From Sphingobium boeckii (GTDB lineage: Bacteria > Pseudomonadota > Alphaproteobacteria > Sphingomonadales > Sphingomonadaceae), in the NCBI RefSeq assembly GCF_014199215.1, contig NZ_JACIJC010000009.1:1-58409 (forward strand): a stretch of DNA of 58,409 nucleotides, in the 5' to 3' direction. This document shows positions 16,158 to 25,647 of this stretch, in pieces (positions within the stretch are counted from its first letter, which is position 1; every line of letters begins with the position of its first letter). The notes below the pieces were generated by a model. That model searched no databases. It saw only the letters and a list, made by a program, of their open reading frames with translations, and had not been told where the DNA came from. Made by a program: the position numbers and the translations under genes.

Positions 16158-16442
16158 CTAACCCGCGTCGCTATGCCCCGCTTCGCCGACCGCGTTGAAT
16201 TCGGTGGCCTGGGTCTGGTGCGCGGGGGTGCCGCCCTGCTTGAGATAGGCGATCGCGTCCGCGGCGATCGGCGAGAGGCCCGCGCTGTCGGCGAAGATCA
16301 TCGATTTCATCCGCGGATCCCAGAACATCGCGACATGATCCGCCAGCGCGGCGACCGCCTTGTCATGCGGCATCATCGCCATGTTGCGCGCGATCTGATT
16401 GGCCATGTAGATCAGACGCTGCTGGGTGGTCATGCCGGTCAT
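16158..16442 (-). CDS. fdsD: NAD-dependent formate dehydrogenase delta subunit
   Basis: A 94-residue protein of the FdsD family. It opens with RLIYMANQIARNMAMM and contains VAALADHVAMFWDPRMK, typical of these small subunits. FdsD is needed for a stable active FdsGBA enzyme, possibly during cofactor insertion. It lies 124 bases after fdsA, separated from it by a dispersed palindromic repeat, so the transcript must pass through that structure. Confidence 0.88.
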   Translation of the reverse strand: MTGMTTQQRLIYMANQIARNMAMMPHDKAVAALADHVAMFWDPRMKSMIFADSAGLSPIAADAIAYLKQGGTPAHQTQATEFNAVGEAGHSDAG

Positions 16443-16566: not shown

Positions 16567-19413
16567 TCACTCCGCGGCTTCCACCACCACAATGCGGCGG
16601 CTCTGCGTCGCCTGTGCCTCATAATCCTCCTGCCAGTCGCTGGGGCCGTTCGAAGGCGTCACCTGCACCGCGGTCACCTTATATTCCGGGCAATTGGTGG
16701 CCCAGTCGGAGAAGTCGGTTGTGACCACATTGGCCTGTGTCGCGGGGTGATGGAAGGTGGTGTAGACCACGCCCGGTGCAACCCGATCGGTGACCAGCGC
16801 GCGCAGCGTGGTCTCGCCCGAGCGGCTGGCGAGGCGCGTCCAGTCGCCGTCTTTGATCCCGCGGTCCTCGGCATCCTGCGGATGCACCTCCAGCAAGTCT
16901 TCAGGATGCCAGGCGGTATTGGCGGTGCGCCTGGTCTGCGCGCCGACATTGTAATGGCTCAGGATCCGCCCGGTGGTGAGCAACAAGGGGAAGCGCGGGC
17001 CGGTCTTCTCGTCGGTGGGGACGTAATCGGTCACCACGAACTTGCCTTTGCCGCCGGTGAAGCCGCCGACGTGCATCACCGGCGTGCCCTCGGGCGCGGC
17101 TTCATTGGCGGGCCATTGCAGCGAACCGGCCTCGTCCAGCCGACGGAAGCTCACGCCCGCGAAGCTCGGCGTGAGGCGGGCGATCTCGTCCATGATCTCG
17201 CTGGGGTGGGTATAGTTCCAGTCGAGCCCCATGGCGCGCGCCAGTTCCTGCGTCACTTCCCAATCGGCATAGCCGTTCAGCGGGGACATCACCTTGCGGA
17301 CCGGCTGGATGCGTCGCTCGGCATTGGTGAAGGTGCCGTCCTTTTCGAGGAAGGTCGATCCGGGCAGGAAGATGTGTGCGTAGTTCGCGGTCTCGTTGAG
17401 GAACAGATCCTGCACGATCACGCATTCCATCGCGTCGAGGCCCGCGGCGACGTGCTTGGTGTTGGGATCGGACTGGAGGATATCCTCGCCCTGTACATAG
17501 AGCGCCTTGAACACGCCATCCACCGCGGCGTCGAGCATGTTGGGGATACGCAAGCCCGGCTCGGCGTCGAGCGTGACGCCCCAATCCTGTTCGAACAGCG
17601 TGCGCGTCGCCTTGTCCGAGATGTGGCGATAGCCGGGAAGCTCGTGCGGGAAGCTGCCCATGTCGCACGCGCCCTGCACATTGTTCTGCCCTCGCAGCGG
17701 GTTCACGCCCACGCCCGGGCGGCCGATATTGCCGGTAGCCATGGCGAGATTGGCGATGGCCATCACCGTGGACGAGCCCTGGCTGTGCTCGGTGACGCCG
17801 AGGCCATAATAGATGGCACCATTGCCGCCAGTGGCGAAGAGGCGCGCGGCGGCGCGCAGATCCTGCGGATCGACCAGGGTGACGGGTGCCAGCGTCTCGG
17901 GGCTGTTCTTGGCCTGGCCGACGAAATCGGACCAGTCCTGAAACTCGTCCCAATCGCAATGCTCGCGCACGAAGGCTTCGTCGGCCAGCCCCTCGGTGAC
18001 GATGACATGGGCGATCGCGGTGAGCACGGCGACATTGGTGCCGGGGCGCAGCGGGAGATGGTATTGCGCCTCGATATGGGGGGTGCGGACCATGTCGATC
18101 CGGCGCGGATCGACGACGATCAATTTAGCGCCCTCGCGGATGCGCTTCTTCATCCGGCTGGCAAACACAGGATGACCGTCCGTGGGGTTGGCACCGATGA
18201 TCAGGATCACGTCCGAATGCTCGACGCTGTCGAAATCCTGTGTGCCCGCGCTGGTGCCGAAGGTGGTCTTCAGCCCATAGCCCGTGGGCGAATGGCAGAC
18301 GCGCGCGCAGGTATCGACATTGTTGTTGCCGAAGCCGGCGCGGATCAGTTTCTGGACGAGAAAGGTCTCCTCATTGGTGCAGCGCGAGGAGGTGATCCCG
18401 CCGATCGAGCGCTGGCCATATTGCCCCTGGATGCGCTTCAGTTCGGACGCGGCATAAGCGAAGGCTTCCTCCCAGGAGACTTCCTGCCACGGCTGATCGG
18501 TGCTGGCGCGGACCATCGGCTTGGTGATGCGCTCCTGATGCGTGGCATAGCCCCAGGCGAAGCGACCCTTGACGCACGAATGGCCGCGATTGGCCTTGCC
18601 GTCCTTCCACGGCACCATGCGCACCAATTGCTCGCCGCGCATCTCCGCGCGGAAGGTGCAGCCGACGCCGCAATAGGCGCAGGTGGTGACGACCGAGCGT
18701 TCGGGCGTGCCGATCTCGACCAGCGCCTTTTCGGTGAGCGTCGCGGTGGGGCAGGCCTGGACGCATGCGCCGCAGGAGACGCATTCGGAGGACAGAAAAT
18801 CGTCGACCGGGGTGCCCGCCGAAACCTTGGAGCCGAAGCCGCGGCTCTCGATCGTCAGCGCGAACGTGCCCTGCACTTCGTCGCACGCGCGCACGCAGCG
18901 CGAGCAGACGATACATTTGGACGAATCGAAATCGAAATAGGGGTTGGAATGGTCCTTGGCCTGGCCGAGGTGGTTCGCGCCTTCATAGCCGTAGCGCACG
19001 TCGCGCAGCCCGACCGCGCCGGCCTGATCCTGCAGCTCGCAATCGCCATTGGCAGCACAGGTGAGGCAATCGAGCGGGTGATCGGAGATGTAGAGTTCCA
19101 TCACGCCCTTGCGCAATTTCTGCAGCTTCGGCGTCTGGGTATGGACCACCATGCCTTCGGAGACGGGGGTGGTGCAGGAGGCCGGGGTGCCGGGTGCGCC
19201 GTCGATCTCGACCAGGCACAGGCGGCAGGAGCCGAACTGCTTGAGGCTGTCGGTGGCGCAGAGCTTGGGGATGTTGGTCCCGATCTCGGAGGCGGCGCGC
19301 ATCACCGTCGATCCGGCGGGGACGGTGACCGCACGACCATTGATCGAGAGCGTGACGCTCTGCGTGGACTTGGATTCGGGGGTGCCGAAATCGGCCTGGC
19401 GGGTATAGGTCAT
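16567..19413 (-). CDS. fdsA: NAD-dependent formate dehydrogenase alpha subunit (Mo)
   Basis: A 948-residue catalytic subunit oxidising formate to CO2. An N-terminal [2Fe-2S] domain (Cys52, 63, 66, 80) is followed by a His/Cys cluster segment (HPLDCLTCAANGDC), two [4Fe-4S] ferredoxin motifs (CIVCSRCVRAC and CVSCGACVQAC), the FDH [4Fe-4S] motif CAYCGVGC, and the bis-MGD domain. The molybdenum ligand is Cys373 in CARVCHSPTGYG, so this is a cysteine and not a selenocysteine enzyme. The C-terminal dinucleotide-binding domain ends near residue 940. It overlaps mobA by four bases. An antisense frame of 891 residues is a GC-rich shadow. Confidence 0.96.
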   Translation of the reverse strand: MTYTRQADFGTPESKSTQSVTLSINGRAVTVPAGSTVMRAASEIGTNIPKLCATDSLKQFGSCRLCLVEIDGAPGTPASCTTPVSEGMVVHTQTPKLQKLRKGVMELYISDHPLDCLTCAANGDCELQDQAGAVGLRDVRYGYEGANHLGQAKDHSNPYFDFDSSKCIVCSRCVRACDEVQGTFALTIESRGFGSKVSAGTPVDDFLSSECVSCGACVQACPTATLTEKALVEIGTPERSVVTTCAYCGVGCTFRAEMRGEQLVRMVPWKDGKANRGHSCVKGRFAWGYATHQERITKPMVRASTDQPWQEVSWEEAFAYAASELKRIQGQYGQRSIGGITSSRCTNEETFLVQKLIRAGFGNNNVDTCARVCHSPTGYGLKTTFGTSAGTQDFDSVEHSDVILIIGANPTDGHPVFASRMKKRIREGAKLIVVDPRRIDMVRTPHIEAQYHLPLRPGTNVAVLTAIAHVIVTEGLADEAFVREHCDWDEFQDWSDFVGQAKNSPETLAPVTLVDPQDLRAAARLFATGGNGAIYYGLGVTEHSQGSSTVMAIANLAMATGNIGRPGVGVNPLRGQNNVQGACDMGSFPHELPGYRHISDKATRTLFEQDWGVTLDAEPGLRIPNMLDAAVDGVFKALYVQGEDILQSDPNTKHVAAGLDAMECVIVQDLFLNETANYAHIFLPGSTFLEKDGTFTNAERRIQPVRKVMSPLNGYADWEVTQELARAMGLDWNYTHPSEIMDEIARLTPSFAGVSFRRLDEAGSLQWPANEAAPEGTPVMHVGGFTGGKGKFVVTDYVPTDEKTGPRFPLLLTTGRILSHYNVGAQTRRTANTAWHPEDLLEVHPQDAEDRGIKDGDWTRLASRSGETTLRALVTDRVAPGVVYTTFHHPATQANVVTTDFSDWATNCPEYKVTAVQVTPSNGPSDWQEDYEAQATQSRRIVVVEAAE

Positions 19414-19940
19414 GCGGCCTGATCCTTGGTGAAGGCGGCCAGATCTTCCGGGGTATTGAGATTATGGAAGCTGGCATCCAGCGTCACGGTGCGCACAGCC
19501 GCGGTCGCCATCCATCCGCGGATGGCGCGATCGGGCTGGGATTCGAGATAATCCTCCAGCGCGCTGGCGAGATCGGCGCGCCACAGGCCGATAAGCTGCT
19601 GGCCTTTGACCACGGCGCTGCCGGGTGCGAGCAAAGCGGGAAGATGGGCGGGGAGGGGAAGAATGTCGCACCCCACGGTCAGCACGGTTTCAAAGCCATG
19701 GGCTTGCGCATGATGGAGCGCTGCGCAGAGACCGCCCAGCGGCCCCTGGTCGAGGGTCGGGCGGTCGGCAATGGATGTGATGCCGGGCCAGCTTCTTCCG
19801 ACGACGATGATGGCGTCGGTCTGAGCAGCGAGCGCTTCGGCGACGTGATCGAGCAGCGGCTTGCCATCCACACTCGCCAGCGCCTTATCGCTGCCGAAGC
19901 GGCGGGATTGGCCACCCGCGATGATTGCGCCGAGGATCAT
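19410..19940 (-). CDS. mobA: Molybdenum cofactor guanylyltransferase
   Basis: A 176-residue enzyme that links GMP to molybdopterin, giving the MGD cofactor used by FdsA. The N-terminal nucleotide loop GAIIAGGQSRRFGSDKAL, DQGPLGGL, and the metal-binding GCDILPLP are all present. It lies between fdsB and fdsA and overlaps fdsA by four bases (ATGA), so cofactor synthesis is coupled to apoenzyme synthesis. ATG 19940 starts the protein directly at MILGAIIAGG. Confidence 0.92.
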   Translation of the reverse strand: MILGAIIAGGQSRRFGSDKALASVDGKPLLDHVAEALAAQTDAIIVVGRSWPGITSIADRPTLDQGPLGGLCAALHHAQAHGFETVLTVGCDILPLPAHLPALLAPGSAVVKGQQLIGLWRADLASALEDYLESQPDRAIRGWMATAAVRTVTLDASFHNLNTPEDLAAFTKDQAA

Positions 19941-19958
19941 GAGGGACACCTGCACCAA

Positions 19959-20052: not shown

Positions 20053-21633
20053 TCATTCCGCCGCCTCCTTCAGCCCGAAATCCTCGGGAAAATGATGGAG
20101 CGCGCTCAACACCGGATAGGGTGTGAAACCGCCCAGCGCGCAGAGCGATCCGAATTTCATGGTGTCGCACAGATCTTCGATGAGGATCACGGCATCTTCC
20201 AGTTCCGTTTGGGCTGAGCGTGTCGAAGCTCTTTCCTTCAAGGCCGGATCGCCGGAAGACGAAGACCCTTCGACAGGTTCAGGATGAACGGAGGAGGAAG
20301 CGGCCAGATCGCGTGCCGCAATGATCCTGTCGATCGTTTCCACGCCACGGGTCGATCCCAGCCGACAGGGGGTGCATTTTCCGCAGCTTTCCACCGCGCA
20401 GAACGTCATGGCAAAGCGCGCCTGCGCGGCCATGTCCACTTCGGTGTCGAACACGGTCACGCCGCCATGGCCGATCAGGCCATCGGCCGCGGCGAAGGCT
20501 TCATAGTCGAAAGGCGTATCGAACAGGGCAGGCGGGAAATAGGCACCGAGCGGTCCGCCCACCTGCACGGCGCGGACAGGGCGGCCGCTCTCGCATCCGC
20601 CGCCGATATCATCCACGAGTTCGCCCAGCGTCACGCCGAAAGCGGTCTCGTACAGCCCGCCATATTTGAGATTGCCCGCAAGCTGGATCGGCATGGTGCC
20701 ACGCGACCGGCCCATGCCATAGGCGGCGTAGGCCTCCGCGCCCTGGGCCAGCACATAGGGAATGGCCGCCAGCGTGAGGACGTTGTTGATGACGGTAGGA
20801 CAGCCGAACAGTCCTTCATGCGCGGGCAGCGGCGGCTTGGCACGCACCTCGCCGCGCTTGCCTTCAAGGCTGTTGAGCAAAGATGTTTCCTCGCCGCAGA
20901 CATAGGCACCCGCGCCTTCGCGCACCTCGATCTCGAACGGCGCGATGATCATCCGGCTGCGCGCGACCGCGGCTTCCAATTTGGCGATGGCATGGGGATA
21001 TTCTGAACGGACGTAGATGAAGCCCTTGCCAGCCCCCGTCGCGAGGCCGGCGATCGCCATGCCTTCGATCAGCATATAGGGATCGCCCTCCATCACCATG
21101 CGATCGGCGAAGGTGCCGCTATCGCCCTCATCGGCATTGCAGACGATATATTTGCGGCCGGCGGGGGCATCCAGCACGGTCTTCCACTTGATCCCCGCGG
21201 GGAAGCCCGCGCCGCCGCGGCCGCGCAGACCGGAGGCGGTGACCGTCTCGACGATCTGGAGCGCCGTCATCGCCTGTGCGGCGCGTAAACCCTTCCAGCC
21301 GCCGGTGGCGTCATAATCGTCGAGGCTCAGAGACCGCGTCTTGCCCGCGCGCGCAAAGGTCAGCCGGGTCTGGCTGGCGATGAAAGGATGATCCTCGATC
21401 CTACCAATGCGAAGCGCATCGGCGGTGCCGAAGAGGATCGCGTCCACATCCGCTGGCGTGACGGGGCCGTATCCAATGCCGTCGATTTCCACCAAGGGCT
21501 CAAGCCAGTGCATCCCCCAACTCGATACCCGTCGGATATCGGCATCGGGGGCCGCCTTCGCAAAGGCAGTCGTCACTCGATCCGCGCCGCACGCCAGCGC
21601 CAGAGCATCGTCGGATATGCGGATCTGCATCAC
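20053..21633 (-). CDS. fdsB: NAD-dependent formate dehydrogenase beta subunit (FMN, NAD)
   Basis: A 526-residue flavoprotein passing electrons from the iron-sulfur clusters to NAD+. A thioredoxin-like N-terminus precedes the NuoF-like domain, with GLRGRGGAGFPAGIKW (FMN/NAD site), YIVCNADEGDSGTFADR, and YVCGEETSLLNSLEG. The [4Fe-4S] domain has ESCGKCTPCRLG and the fourth Cys in GSLCALGG. An 87-base palindromic repeat is inserted in frame between the third and fourth ligands and adds 29 residues, including VHPEPVEG, that relatives lack. The frame remains open, so the protein may still work. It overlaps fdsG by four bases. Confidence 0.94.
   Translation of the reverse strand: MMQIRISDDALALACGADRVTTAFAKAAPDADIRRVSSWGMHWLEPLVEIDGIGYGPVTPADVDAILFGTADALRIGRIEDHPFIASQTRLTFARAGKTRSLSLDDYDATGGWKGLRAAQAMTALQIVETVTASGLRGRGGAGFPAGIKWKTVLDAPAGRKYIVCNADEGDSGTFADRMVMEGDPYMLIEGMAIAGLATGAGKGFIYVRSEYPHAIAKLEAAVARSRMIIAPFEIEVREGAGAYVCGEETSLLNSLEGKRGEVRAKPPLPAHEGLFGCPTVINNVLTLAAIPYVLAQGAEAYAAYGMGRSRGTMPIQLAGNLKYGGLYETAFGVTLGELVDDIGGGCESGRPVRAVQVGGPLGAYFPPALFDTPFDYEAFAAADGLIGHGGVTVFDTEVDMAAQARFAMTFCAVESCGKCTPCRLGSTRGVETIDRIIAARDLAASSSVHPEPVEGSSSSGDPALKERASTRSAQTELEDAVILIEDLCDTMKFGSLCALGGFTPYPVLSALHHFPEDFGLKEAAE
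20205..20291. repeat. Palindromic repeat inserted in frame in fdsB
   Basis: The element begins CCGTTTGGGCTGAGCGTGTC and ends CGACAGGTTCAGGATGAACG. Its 87 bases are a multiple of three, and the inner part is partly self-complementary. On the minus strand it reads VHPEPVEGSSSSGDPALKER and onward. This is the well-known mobile repeat of sphingomonads, usually intergenic. Confidence 0.8.
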
Positions 21634-22076
21634 AGCGCCTCGATCAGCGCGCCGAGCGACGCTTCGTCCAGGCGCGCGTAAACATCATGCCCGATCATTG
21701 CATTGGGGCCAACGCTGCACAGGCCGAGGCAATAGACGGGCTCGATCGCGATCCGGTTGGCCGCCTTTGCTGCGGCCCAGTTCGCCAGCGGTTCGGAGCC
21801 GCGCGCCTGACAGGCTTCCGCGCGGCAGAGCTTGATCACAGGGCGCGCTTCCGGGCGGGTACGGAAATCGTGATAGAAACTGATCACGCCATGCACTTCG
21901 GCACGACTGAGATTGAGTTCCAGCGCAACGGCGCGGATTGTGGTGTCGTCGATCCAGCCGAATTCGGCCTGAAGCGCATGGAGGATTGGTAGCAATGCGC
22001 CTTCGAGGTGCTTGTTCTGGCGGATGGTCGTGGTGACCCGCTCCGCATCGAACTCATTGTCACCTTGCCGTTCCAT
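21630..22076 (-). CDS. fdsG: NAD-dependent formate dehydrogenase gamma subunit
   Basis: A 148-residue NuoE-like subunit with a thioredoxin-fold [2Fe-2S] domain; the ligands are Cys84, Cys89, Cys116 and Cys120 (LCRAEACQARG and YCLGLCSVGP). It is the first gene of the fds operon. ATG 22076 has GGGAGGA thirteen bases upstream; the frame continues into the end of the LysR gene but that part is not FdsG-like. The promoter region holds the shared palindrome at 22124-22151. Confidence 0.92.
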   Translation of the reverse strand: MERQGDNEFDAERVTTTIRQNKHLEGALLPILHALQAEFGWIDDTTIRAVALELNLSRAEVHGVISFYHDFRTRPEARPVIKLCRAEACQARGSEPLANWAAAKAANRIAIEPVYCLGLCSVGPNAMIGHDVYARLDEASLGALIEAL

Positions 22077-22123
22077 GAGATTTTGCGTCCTCCCTTTCCT
22101 GGCATCCGTCAAATTGACTGCGC

Positions 22124-22151
22124 TTATCTTCGATAGAGGGTTTCTATCAAC
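22124..22151 (-). promoter_or_regulatory. Putative LysR operator upstream of fdsG
   Basis: On the plus strand it reads GATAGA (22132-22137), GGGTT, TCTATC (22143-22148), with another half-site TTATC at 22124-22128. ATAGA-N5-TCTAT is an ATAG-N7-CTAT palindrome of the LysR/OxyR kind. It overlaps the lysR stop codon and lies 55 bases before the fdsG start. The same ATAGA-N5-TCTATCAAC occurs at 25623-25641 before the hydroxymethylglutathione dehydrogenase gene. Confidence 0.7.
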
Positions 22152-23052
22152 AACTGCGCAGCGGCGATAATAACCGAAGCGTTTCAGCGATTGAAAATGC
22201 CGCTTTGGCCAAGGGAGACAGCGGTTCTCTGTCGAGCACCACCAAGCCGATGGTGTTGGGCGGCGCGGGATCGACAATGTCTATCACGCGAAGATCGGGA
22301 TCACCCGCCACGAACTCGCCATGGCTATCCGTCACGATGCTTGAGAGCCCGCCATGGGAAACCATCGAAAGCAATGCCACATAGGAATCCGCGGTGGCGA
22401 CGGGGTCAGCCTTCAGGCCAAGCGTCACGAGATGCGCATCGAGGATGCGGCGATTCTGCATTCCTTCATGAAGCAGGCACAAAGGCGCTTCGGCAGCGTC
22501 TTTCCATGCGATGCGTTCCAGTCCGCCGAGCGGCGCATCGGCGCGCGTGGCAAACATGTAACGCTCGGCATAAAGCGGCACAGAACGGACCTGCGCAGGG
22601 GGTTCATTGTCGAGATAGGTCAGCCCCGCGTCAATCTCATAGTCAAGCAGGCCGCGTTCGATCTCCCGCGACGTGAGCGAGCGGATGGTGACCGTCAGCC
22701 GGGGATGGCTGGCGTGCAGCGCCTTCATCAGAAATCCGATGGAGGGCATGGCTGCGGGGATGGAACCGATGCGGAGCTGTCCCCGCAGCGGCCCGGCGGG
22801 TGCGTCGATCGCGTGACGCAGGCCTTCATGGTCGGCCAGCAACTGGCGGGCGAAGGGCAGGATCGAATGCCCCTCCGGCGTCAGATCGATAAAGCGCCGA
22901 TCCCGGTTGACGAGCCGCTTGCCGAGCATCTCTTCCAGCGCGGCGATCCCTGCGGACAGCGTGGGCTGGGTGACGTGGCAGCTTTCCGCCGCACGCGCGA
23001 AATGCTTTTCACGGGCGAGAGCCACGAAATAATCGAGGAAGCGGAGCTGCAT
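22147..23052 (-). CDS. fdsR: LysR-family regulator of formate/formaldehyde genes
   Basis: A 301-residue LysR regulator. The winged helix-turn-helix spans about residues 5-62 ([23 protein letters not shown]), followed by a two-lobed effector domain starting near [12 protein letters not shown]. It is the gene directly upstream of fdsG and downstream of fghA. A related FdsR controls fds genes in other proteobacteria. The ATAG-N7-CTAT palindromes at both operon promoters are its likely targets (inference). The repeat at the fds promoter overlaps this gene's stop codon. Confidence 0.85.
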
Positions 23053-23148
23053 GGAGATGGTCTAGGCGAAGGGCAGGTGGAGGGGAAGAAGGGGCCACCC
23101 CCGGCCCCTCCAAGAAGACTTGGAAGGGCGTAAAGGAAGTGCCCAATG

Positions 23149-23182
23149 CACCTCCCCTCCCGGCCTTCCGGGAGGGGAGGTG
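23149..23182. terminator. Hairpin terminator after fghA
   Basis: CACCTCCCCTCCCGG and CCGGGAGGGGAGGTG form a perfect 15-base stem with a four-base loop, just beyond the fghA stop. No U tract is seen. It separates the formaldehyde operon from the LysR gene. Confidence 0.7.
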
Positions 23183-23193
23183 GGCCTTCTAGA

Positions 23194-24042
23194 TCAAATC
23201 AACCGCGCGCCATGCCAGCGCACATGATCATCCATGAAGCTGGAGATGAAATAATAGCTATGATCATAGCCCGGCTGCATTCGCAGCGTGAGCGCGATTC
23301 CGGCCTTTTCGCAGGCCGCTTGGAGCAATTCGGGCTTCAATTGTTCCACGAGAAAATTGTCCGCCGCGCCCTGATCCACCAGGATTTCAGGCAGGCGCGC
23401 GCCATCCTCGATCAGCGCAATGCTATCATAAGCGCGCCATCCAGCCTGATCCACGCCGAGATAGCCGCCCAGCGCCTTATGGCCCCACGGGCAGTTCAGT
23501 GGCGAGGCGATCGGCGCGAAGGCGGAAACGCTCCTGAACACGCCGGGATTTTTCAGCGCGATGGTGAGCGCCCCGTGCCCGCCCATCGAATGGCCTGTAA
23601 TGGATTGCCGCGCCATGTCCGCTGGGAAATTGTCCGCGATGATTCCGGGCAATTCCTCGGTGATATACGAATACATCTGGAAGTTTTGCGACCACGGGGC
23701 TTGCGTGGCATCGACATAGAAGCCGGCACCCTTACCGAAATCATAGCCCCCATCATCAGGCACATCATCACCACGCGGCGACGTATCCGGGCAGATGAAG
23801 ATGATGCCCAGTTCAGCGCAGGCGCGCCGATATTCGCCCTTTTCCATCACATTGGCGTGCGTGCAGGTCAGGCCGGAGAGATACCACAGGATCGGCAGCT
23901 TCGCGCCGGGCGCTTCGGCCTGGGGCGGGAGATAGACCGCGAAGGTCATCTCCGTTCCCGTTGCAGTGCTGGCGTGTTTGTAGACGCCCTGCGTGCCGCC
24001 GAAGCTCCGATTGATGGAAATCGTTTCCACGCTGTGTGTCAT
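23194..24042 (-). CDS. fghA: S-formylglutathione hydrolase
   Basis: A 282-residue alpha/beta hydrolase (esterase D type) that splits S-formylglutathione into formate and glutathione, the second step of glutathione-dependent formaldehyde oxidation. The nucleophile lies in GHSMGGHGA; LSGLTCTHANVMEKGEYRR and the final PGYDHSYYFISSF with the catalytic His are diagnostic. ATG 24042 is preferred; the first eight residues of the longer frame are inside the VOC gene. It overlaps that gene by four bases, so the two are translationally coupled. Confidence 0.95.
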   Translation of the reverse strand: MTHSVETISINRSFGGTQGVYKHASTATGTEMTFAVYLPPQAEAPGAKLPILWYLSGLTCTHANVMEKGEYRRACAELGIIFICPDTSPRGDDVPDDGGYDFGKGAGFYVDATQAPWSQNFQMYSYITEELPGIIADNFPADMARQSITGHSMGGHGALTIALKNPGVFRSVSAFAPIASPLNCPWGHKALGGYLGVDQAGWRAYDSIALIEDGARLPEILVDQGAADNFLVEQLKPELLQAACEKAGIALTLRMQPGYDHSYYFISSFMDDHVRWHGARLI

Positions 24043-24422
24043 GCAGCCGGGCGGTGCAGCGCACACAATTTATTGCCATCGGGATCGCGCAGATAGGCGA
24101 GGTAGAGTTTGCCGAAAGCACCTTCGCGAATGCCCGGCGGATCTTCGCACGCCGTGCCGCCATGGGCGAGGCCGGCCGCGTGCCACGCATCGGCCTGTTC
24201 GGGTGATGAAGCGGCGAAGCCGACGGTGCCGCCATTGGCATGGCAGGCGGGATCGCCGTCGATCGGGTTGCCCACCATGAAGAGGCCGCCGTTGTTCATA
24301 TAGATCAGCCGACCCTTGTCATCGACCATGGCCGGCTTGGCGCCGAACACGCCGAGCGTGGCGTCGTAGAATGTCTTCGATCGTGCGGTGTCGTTGGACC
24401 CGATCATTATGTGCGAAAACAT
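24039..24422 (-). CDS. VOC-family (glyoxalase-like) protein
   Basis: A 127-residue vicinal-oxygen-chelate protein: HIMIGSNDTARSKTFYDATLG opens the first beta-alpha-beta unit and YLRDPDGNKLCALH closes the second. It lies between the dehydrogenase and hydrolase genes of formaldehyde oxidation and overlaps fghA by ATGA. VOC proteins include glyoxalase I and other metal-dependent enzymes, several acting on glutathione adducts. A role with hydroxymethyl- or formylglutathione is inferred from position only. Confidence 0.85.
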   Translation of the reverse strand: MFSHIMIGSNDTARSKTFYDATLGVFGAKPAMVDDKGRLIYMNNGGLFMVGNPIDGDPACHANGGTVGFAASSPEQADAWHAAGLAHGGTACEDPPGIREGAFGKLYLAYLRDPDGNKLCALHRPAA

Positions 24423-24446
24423 GGCATCTCCCTCCTGTTGGATTGC

Positions 24447-25556
24447 TTAGAATACGACGACGCTGCGGATCGATTCGCCCGCGTGCATCAGATCGAAGCC
24501 CTTGTTGATCTCTTCGAGCGAGAGAACATGGGTGATCATGGGATCGATCTGGATTTTGCCGTTCATATACCAATCGACGATCTTTGGCACGTCTGTGCGT
24601 CCGCGTGCGCCGCCGAAGGCCGAGCCTTTCCAGACGCGCCCGGTGACGAGCTGAAACGGACGGGTGGAGATTTCCTTGCCCGCTTCCGCCACGCCGATCA
24701 CGACCGAGACGCCCCATCCGCGATGGCAGGCTTCCAGCGCCTGGCGCATGACGATCGTGTTGCCCGTGCAATCAAAGGTGTAATCCGCGCCGCCGCCGGT
24801 CAACTCGACCAGATGCTGGACGATATCGCCCTCGATCTCCTTGGGGTTCACGAAATGGGTCATGCCGAATTTGCGGCCCCAGGCCTCGCGATCTGGATTG
24901 ATATCGACGCCGATGATCTTGTCCGCGCCCACCATCTGCGCGCCCTGCAGCACGTTCAGGCCGATGCCGCCCAGGCCGAAGACGATCACATTGTCGCCCG
25001 CCTGCACTTTTGCGGTGTTCACCACGGCACCGACACCCGTCGTGACGCCGCAGCCAATGTAGCAACTCTTGTCGAACGGCGCGTCTTCGCGGATTTTCGC
25101 CACGGCGATCTCAGGCAGCACGGTAAAGTTCGAGAAAGTGGAGCAGCCCATATAATGGAAGATCTGCTGACCCTTGTAGCTGAAGCGGCTGGTGCCGTCC
25201 GGCATCACACCCTTGCCCTGTGTCGCGCGAATCGCGGTGCACAGGTTGGTCTTGCCGCTGAGGCAGGATTTACACTGGCGGCATTCCGGCGTGTAAAGCG
25301 GGATCACATGATCGCCGACCGCAACCGAGGTGACTCCAGCGCCGATCTCGCGGACGATGCCCGCACCTTCATGGCCCAGCACACTGGGGAAGATGCCTTC
25401 GCTGTCCAAGCCGTCGAGCGTGTAGGCGTCCGTGTGGCAGATGCCCGTCGCCATGATCTCGACAAGAACCTCACCGGCCTTCGGGCCTTCGAGATCGAGC
25501 TCGACGATCTCCAGCGGCTTCTTGGCTTCAAAAGCGACGGCGGCACGGGTCTTCAT
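24447..25556 (-). CDS. frmA: S-(hydroxymethyl)glutathione dehydrogenase (class III ADH)
   Basis: A 369-residue zinc dehydrogenase oxidising the spontaneous formaldehyde-glutathione adduct with NAD+. Catalytic zinc ligands lie in CHTDAYTL and GHEGAGIV; the structural zinc site is [15 protein letters not shown]. The Rossmann motif [13 protein letters not shown] follows. The product is passed to fghA. It heads a three-gene operon (frmA, VOC, fghA). A palindrome matching the one before fdsG lies 65 bases upstream. Confidence 0.95.
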
Positions 25557-25600
25557 GAATGTTCCTCCCTGAACGGAAATCTGATTCTGCCTGTAGCGCG

Positions 25601-25647
25601 CCTATCGAAACCGGCAACCTTCATAGAAAATGTCTATCAACGATAGA
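25601..25647 (-). promoter_or_regulatory. Putative LysR operator upstream of frmA
   Basis: CATAGA (25622-25627), AAATG, TCTATC (25633-25638), AAC, GATAGA (25642-25647) form two overlapping palindromes, with an extra CTATCG at 25602-25607. ATAGA-N5-TCTATCAAC is identical in pattern to 22133-22151 before fdsG. The site lies between the eda stop and the frmA start. Confidence 0.7.

What the first reader, a model, noticed from the sequence alone, without database searches (positions are those of the whole stretch)
22124..25647. One palindrome serves both formaldehyde and formate operons
ATAGA-N5-TCTATCAAC occurs at 22133-22151 (55 bases before fdsG) and 25623-25641 (65 bases before frmA). Fourteen fixed positions agree and both sites have an extra half-site, TTATC or GATAGA. 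The ATAG-N7-CTAT form is typical of LysR/OxyR-class operators, and a LysR gene lies between the two operons. This points to one regulator joining glutathione-dependent formaldehyde oxidation to formate oxidation. It also overlaps the lysR stop codon at the fds site.
Basis: partly seen in the sequence, partly recalled or inferred. Interest (0 to 1): 0.75.

Follow-up and report, generated by a model that had tools for sequence, protein, structure and literature searches.

The report
Formate-regulator operator shared with formaldehyde operon
A DNA switch that in many bacteria sits between a regulator gene and a formate-oxidising enzyme occurs here a second time, in front of the formaldehyde-oxidising genes, so one regulator that probably senses formate may run the whole route from formaldehyde to carbon dioxide in this lineage.

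Summary
In detail: ATAG-N7-CTAT occurs exactly twice in the window, and ATAGA-N5-TCTAT four times in the 4.03-Mb genome.

ATAG-N7-CTAT stands between an orthologous LysR gene and fdsG in 58 of 58 lysR-fds loci, 48 exact and 10 with one mismatch, and exactly in 3 of 3 loci fetched later. In same-family fds loci lacking this regulator it is exact in 0 of 30 and within one mismatch in 2 of 30. It is best read as the operator of this LysR, an FdsR-type regulator. Relatives of the regulator stand beside two unrelated formate dehydrogenases, pointing to formate as signal. In 43 of 58 loci, as here, the lysR stop codon TGA is the start of the operator.

The frmA half holds only here and in Sphingomonas colocasiae (one mismatch). 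Of 60 frmA loci from regulator-bearing genomes, 0 are exact and 5 have one mismatch, four of them a different Aureimonas sequence. The frmA operator mirrors the fdsG one. I read it as a lineage-specific extension of a known regulator. No binding or expression was tested.

The parts
22132..22148 (-). operator dyad GATAG-N7-CTATC before fdsG; the TGA at 22149-22147 is the lysR stop codon
   Evidence: orthologous position in 58 of 58 lysR-fds loci
22124..22128 (-). third half-site GATAA, three bases beyond the dyad on the fdsG side (TTATC on +)
   Evidence: the place is (G/C)AT in the relatives
22108..22117 (-). TCAATTTGAC block at fixed distance from the operator, likely -35 region of the fdsG promoter
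   Evidence: aligned column block in 59 rows; role inferred; the promoter scan does not list it
25622..25638 (-). operator dyad CATAG-N7-CTATC (+ strand) before frmA
   Evidence: one mismatch in S. colocasiae
25642..25646 (-). third half-site (GATAG on +), on the side away from frmA, directly behind the eda stop codon (25650-25648)
   Evidence: conserved in S. colocasiae
25602..25606 (-). fourth half-site GATAG on the frmA side (CTATC on +)
   Evidence: conserved in S. colocasiae
22147..23052 (-). lysR, FdsR-type LysR regulator, 301 aa (P0001)
   Evidence: orthologues
21630..22076 (-). fdsG, formate dehydrogenase gamma subunit
   Evidence: best NCBIfam model PRK05988, 175.8 bits, cut-off 198
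20053..21633 (-). fdsB, formate dehydrogenase beta subunit (NuoF-like)
19410..19958 (-). mobA-like gene between fdsB and fdsA
16567..19413 (-). fdsA, formate dehydrogenase alpha subunit
   Evidence: TIGR01591 above cut-off
16158..16442 (-). fdsD, formate dehydrogenase delta subunit
   Evidence: PF11390
24447..25556 (-). frmA, S-(hydroxymethyl)glutathione dehydrogenase
   Evidence: TIGR02818 above cut-off
24039..24422 (-). glyoxalase/VOC-domain gene between frmA and fghA
   Evidence: PF00903
23194..24066 (-). fghA, S-formylglutathione hydrolase (ORF bounds as listed; the real start may be 24036-24042)
   Evidence: TIGR02821 above cut-off
23053..23193 (-). fghA-lysR gap with two strong hairpins; possible partial transcription barrier
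   Evidence: z-score -4.47; role inferred

Best explanation
The palindrome is the operator of the LysR-type regulator encoded between the two operons, an FdsR-type regulator. At fdsG it binds the dyad that begins in its own stop codon plus a third half-site next to the promoter and, most likely when formate is present, activates the formate dehydrogenase operon (fdsGB-mobA-fdsA-fdsD). In the lineage of this genome and S. colocasiae a second, mirror-image operator lies between eda and frmA, so that frmA-VOC-fghA answers to the same regulator. Formate, the end product of frmA and fghA, would then serve as signal both for its own removal and for the formaldehyde steps that make it. Shown: the sites, their conservation, their tie to the regulator gene. 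Inferred: binding, formate as effector, activation at fdsG, and any effect at frmA.
For: Site in 58 of 58 lysR-fds loci (48 exact, 10 one mismatch) against 1 exact and 0 one-mismatch in 229 control windows; the control windows were 270 bases, the tested stretches up to about 430. Exact site in 3 of 3 loci fetched after the motif was defined. Family sample: within one mismatch in 7 of 7 regulator-bearing relatives (two of them also among the 80 loci) and 2 of 30 regulator-less fds loci. In N. malaysiense, whose lysR has no fds beside it, the fdsG elsewhere carries a site. Site within one mismatch before lysR itself in 28 of 58 loci, which suggests autoregulation. Of the 80 relatives 58 have fds downstream and 18 have NAD-dependent formate dehydrogenase next to them, 16 downstream and 2 upstream. 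C. necator FdsR is formate-inducible (passages of PMC7057948). frmA: matrix score 29.2, first in the window; half-site block 38 of 55 identical to S. colocasiae, next 27 bases 6 of 27.
Against: No binding or expression data. The frmA site is exact only in the window; S. colocasiae has one mismatch and scores 6.4 bits, below every training site (lowest 14.3). frmA of 60 loci in other regulator-bearing genomes: 0 exact, 5 with one mismatch, of which one is S. colocasiae and four are one Aureimonas form without GATAG. L022 and L072 have frmA before lysR-fds without the frmA site. The frmA operator is turned round relative to fdsG, so activation with the same geometry is doubtful. ATAG-N7-CTAT also stands directly before other LysR genes, so a second regulator could bind at frmA. 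G031 has an FdsR-type fdsG promoter without a detected regulator.
Confidence: 0.66

Rival explanations
1. The regulator controls fds only; the frmA site is a weaker or decaying operator with no regulatory effect on frmA.
For: frmA site absent in nearly all other regulator-bearing genomes; mirror orientation; low score in S. colocasiae.
Against: Exact match with a matrix score at least as good as the fdsG site; the four half-site places are conserved with S. colocasiae while flanking bases are not.
Confidence: 0.2
2. OxyR or another LysR regulator with the same half-site binds one or both sites, tying them to peroxide or another signal.
For: OxyR is known to bind repeated ATAGnt elements (passages of PMC5002191). 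OxyR chains are the best solved relatives of this LysR. Three unlinked GATAG-N7-CTATC sites in other genomes stand directly before other LysR genes, and one in this genome.
Against: The fdsG site goes with the presence of this lysR gene (7 of 7 against 2 of 30). The best OxyR-like gene of this genome (L185, 231.7 bits, under the cut-off of 329) has no ATAG-N7-CTAT within one mismatch in the 3.9 kb looked at.
Confidence: 0.09
3. The frmA operator acts on lysR: it is the autoregulatory site of a frmA-VOC-fghA-lysR transcript, with control of frmA a by-product.
For: 28 of 58 relatives have a site within one mismatch just before lysR; the window has none there and the genes run in one direction.
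Against: About 2.5 kb and strong hairpins lie between the frmA site and lysR.
Confidence: 0.12

Closest known systems
FdsR of Cupriavidus necator (LysR-type, formate-inducible regulator of fds)
   Same: LysR-type regulator next to fds genes; formate is the inducer of the C. necator system (Table 1 passage of PMC7057948). The name fdsR is also used for a LysR gene directly before fdsGBA in Methylosinus trichosporium OB3b (passage of PMC3615186).
   Different: Here the formaldehyde operon also carries an operator. The C. necator protein sequence and its binding site were not available to me, so orthology and operator identity were not compared.
OxyR, IlvY and CynR group of LysR regulators
   Same: Sequence relatives; OxyR half-site ATAGnt (passages of PMC5002191).
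   Different: Scores far under the OxyR and CynR cut-offs; in the alignment a Gln, invariant in 34 relatives, stands where I recall the peroxide-sensing Cys of OxyR.
frmA-VOC-fghA-fdsGB overlapping operons of other Sphingomonadaceae
   Same: Same genes joined into one route; fghA and fdsG overlap in 14 FdsR-less loci, among them a congener, G107.
   Different: They have neither lysR nor the exact operator; here lysR stands between fghA and fdsG and there are two operators.

Membership tests
FdsR-type LysR regulator | LysR HTH and LysR substrate-binding domain | tested here: met
   PF00126 and PF03466 above cut-off
FdsR-type LysR regulator | gene beside a formate dehydrogenase operon, conserved in relatives | tested here: met
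   76 of 80 relatives have fds downstream (58) or NAD-dependent formate dehydrogenase downstream (16) or upstream (2); 4 neither in the DNA held
FdsR-type LysR regulator | conserved operator in the promoter of the formate dehydrogenase | tested here: met
   58 of 58 lysR-fds loci; 15 of 16 loci with NAD-FDH downstream have the relaxed GATnG-N7-CnATC form, which is not rare in control windows (101 exact of 4169)
FdsR-type LysR regulator | orthology to C. necator FdsR | not tested
   C. necator sequence not obtained; the betaproteobacterial fds plasmid looked at (Azoarcus, L221) has no LysR gene annotated in front
FdsR-type LysR regulator | formate as effector | not testable with these tools
   needs binding or reporter assay
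OxyR | score over the curated OxyR cut-off | tested here: not met
   106.1 bits against 329
OxyR | peroxidatic cysteine | tested here: not met
   Q199 aligns there and is invariant in 34 sequences; the place of the Cys in the (mutated) PDB chains is recalled
CynR | score over the curated CynR cut-off | tested here: not met
   148.9 bits against 277

The most novel reading that the evidence does not exclude
In this lineage formate serves as proxy signal for formaldehyde: a formate-sensing LysR has recruited the glutathione-dependent formaldehyde operon through a mirror-image operator, giving a product-driven loop in which formate raises both its own oxidation and the steps that make it (or, from the mirrored geometry, represses them until formate is cleared). 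Beyond that, this regulator type keeps its operator fused to its own stop codon across several families of Alphaproteobacteria while the formate dehydrogenase behind it has been exchanged for an unrelated one.
Probability: 0.4. Interest if true: 0.6.

Novelty: new variant of a known kind. Interest (0 to 1): 0.46.

Why it matters
It gives a specific operator sequence and promoter layout for FdsR-type regulators of Alphaproteobacteria, usable for predicting formate regulons and for building formate sensors. If the frmA site works, it is a clear case in which formaldehyde detoxification, whose own substrate is hard to sense, is run by its product formate. Two easily made promoter changes and one gene deletion would test it. 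The stop codon lying inside the operator ties the end of a regulator's reading frame to its own binding site, a constraint conserved across families.

Tried and rejected
A general sphingomonad link between frmA and the motif: rejected; 0 exact among 60 frmA loci of regulator-bearing genomes. In the first of the two searches 30 of 36 matches were given as loci; six further frmA copies were not looked at.

OxyR as the regulator: considered and held unlikely.

Insertion of lysR into an existing frmA-fghA-fds operon: first favoured because fghA and fdsG overlap in 14 FdsR-less loci. Not upheld by the FdsA tree (quick method, 47 chosen rows), which puts the window's FdsA with lysR-bearing operons (SH-aLRT 86 to 96), not with that of congener G107. 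Gain, loss or transfer is left open.

A wider regulon: of 61 GATAG-N7-CTATC places in 22 regulator-bearing genomes (reversed control 25) I fetched 20 outside the lysR cluster. Most lay inside ORFs; three stood before other LysR genes and one before an unlinked fdsG. No other C1 gene recurred.

Literature: 10 searches in an open-access library that lacks most subscription journals. None listed a paper describing this operator or a formaldehyde operon under FdsR. The original C. necator FdsR study (1999, recalled) was not seen.
Full report
What is there. The minus strand of the window carries edd, eda, frmA, a VOC-domain gene, fghA, lysR, fdsG, fdsB, mobA, fdsA and fdsD in one direction (edd and eda are my reading of the ORFs). 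The two palindromes lie between eda and frmA and between lysR and fdsG, exactly as reported. ATAG-N7-CTAT occurs nowhere else in the window. ATAGA-N5-TCTAT occurs at two more places in the 4.03-Mb genome, one at the start codon of another LysR gene and one inside a fliL-like gene.

The motif belongs to the LysR gene. An orthologous LysR gene (E up to 1e-60) was found in 8 of 119 sampled family genomes, the window's own included. A profile of seven of them brought 80 loci with up to 10 kb on each side, the best 80 of 540 confirmed relatives. In 58 of the 80, fdsG lies downstream on the same strand within 7 kb. In all 58 a site within one mismatch of ATAG-N7-CTAT stands before fdsG or at the end of lysR: 48 exact, 10 with one mismatch. 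Of 229 control windows further inside the same loci 1 had an exact site and 0 had one mismatch; these windows were shorter (270 bases against up to about 430), which does not explain the difference. Three further loci, found later in an order-wide sample of 396 genomes, carry exact sites directly behind lysR.

Negative control. fdsA was found in 40 of the 119 family genomes, the LysR in 8. For 30 of the 32 regulator-less genomes the fdsG upstream region could be read (G025 and G034 could not): 0 exact sites, 2 with one mismatch (that call's table also holds L208, which is regulator-bearing and is not counted here). One of the two, G031, has a complete promoter of this type without a detected LysR gene. 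Against this, 7 of 7 regulator-bearing relatives of the same sample have a site, 6 of them exact; two of the seven, G011 and G067, are also among the 80 loci.

Promoter layout. Aligned on the operator, 59 fdsG promoters (window included) share TGATAGA-N5-TCTATCA, then (G/C)AT three bases beyond the dyad, then TCGATTTGACC at fixed distance, probably the -35 region. In 43 of 58 fds loci the TGA of the operator is the stop codon of lysR, as in the window. The same holds for 8 of 16 loci with NAD-dependent formate dehydrogenase downstream, where the dyad is usually TGATCGA-N5-TCGATCA. The relaxed form used for that count is common in control windows (101 exact of 4169 windows of 340 bases), so its weight lies in the fixed place, not in its mere presence. 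A site within one mismatch also stands just before lysR in 28 of 58 fds loci, which fits autoregulation.

The signal. Of the 80 relatives 58 stand before fds. 18 stand beside a metal-independent NAD-dependent formate dehydrogenase: 16 before it, 2 behind it. 4 have neither in the DNA held. The NAD enzyme was identified by an NCBIfam equivalog far above cut-off in L084 and L071 and by similarity in the rest. Plasmid loci show both kinds too: fds in Sinorhizobium meliloti and Paracoccus ferrooxidans, NAD-dependent formate dehydrogenase in Shinella and Paraburkholderia. The regulator thus goes with formate, not with one enzyme. C. necator FdsR is induced by formate (passages of PMC7057948). A tree of 86 regulators needs two changes of partner (several long branches, so this is a rough count).

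The frmA site. The weight matrix built without the window gives the frmA site 29.2 bits, slightly more than the fdsG site. Only one of the four other genomes of the genus held carries the regulator, S. colocasiae. There the eda-frmA gap keeps the pattern: 38 of 55 bases over the half-sites are identical, 6 of 27 beyond them. The canonical dyad in it has one mismatch and scores only 6.4. The three congeners without the regulator, and the second frmA of this genome, have no site (2 to 4 mismatches). Of 60 frmA loci in 53 regulator-bearing genomes (29 and 24 genomes), 0 have an exact site and 5 have one mismatch: S. colocasiae and four Aureimonas sequences of one form that lacks GATAG. Two other clusters with frmA before lysR-fds, L022 and L072, have no site at frmA. 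So the frmA operator is specific to this lineage.

Geometry. At fdsG the half-sites run GATAG-N7-CTATC-N3-GATAA towards the promoter; at frmA they run CTATC-N3-GATAG-N7-CTATG, with a further GATAG 20 bases on. The first three are the mirror image of the fdsG operator. Whether the regulator activates or represses at frmA cannot be told from sequence.

Cluster history. In 14 regulator-less loci fghA and fdsG overlap by a few codons, so that formaldehyde and formate oxidation form one operon. In the window and S. colocasiae lysR stands between them. The FdsA tree groups the window with lysR-bearing operons, so lysR and fds seem to have travelled together; how frmA-VOC-fghA came to lie in front is open. 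The fghA-lysR gap holds strong hairpins, which may weaken read-through and make a second operator useful; this is inference.

Known or new. The regulator is best called FdsR-type: same kind of gene, place and probable signal. Orthology to C. necator FdsR was not tested. It is not OxyR or CynR by curated cut-off. The formaldehyde operon under such a regulator, and this operator, were not in the papers listed by ten searches of an open-access library. Of these papers I saw passages of PMC7057948, PMC3615186, PMC5002191 and PMC11879842, and otherwise only listings with the starts of abstracts.

Noticed in passing
window 20053-21633 (-), insert near 20190-20300: fdsB has an in-frame insert of about 35 residues (SSVHPEPVEGSSSS...) that S. 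colocasiae fdsB lacks; it resembles an in-frame copy of a dispersed repeat. S. formosensis has a different insert at the same place.
   Followed up: partly
G000:C4:6034-7137 (L129): A second frmA (88% identical protein) in the same genome, without an FdsR-type site and with a different promoter.
   Followed up: partly
L127 and L128, upstream of frmA: Two congeners without the regulator share a palindrome TTATACGACTGTATAA before frmA, perhaps the operator of another formaldehyde regulator.
   Followed up: no
window 23053-23193: Two strong hairpins between fghA and lysR; S. colocasiae has a different inverted repeat in the same gap.
   Followed up: partly
L135, L136, L137 near base 2000; L001 1501-1515: GATAG-N7-CTATC or ATAGA-N5-TCTAT stands directly before the start codon of other LysR genes, probably autoregulatory sites of OxyR-like regulators.
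   Followed up: partly
L213 (G031), upstream of fdsG: A complete FdsR-type promoter behind another gene, in a genome where no such LysR was found at E 1e-60.
   Followed up: no
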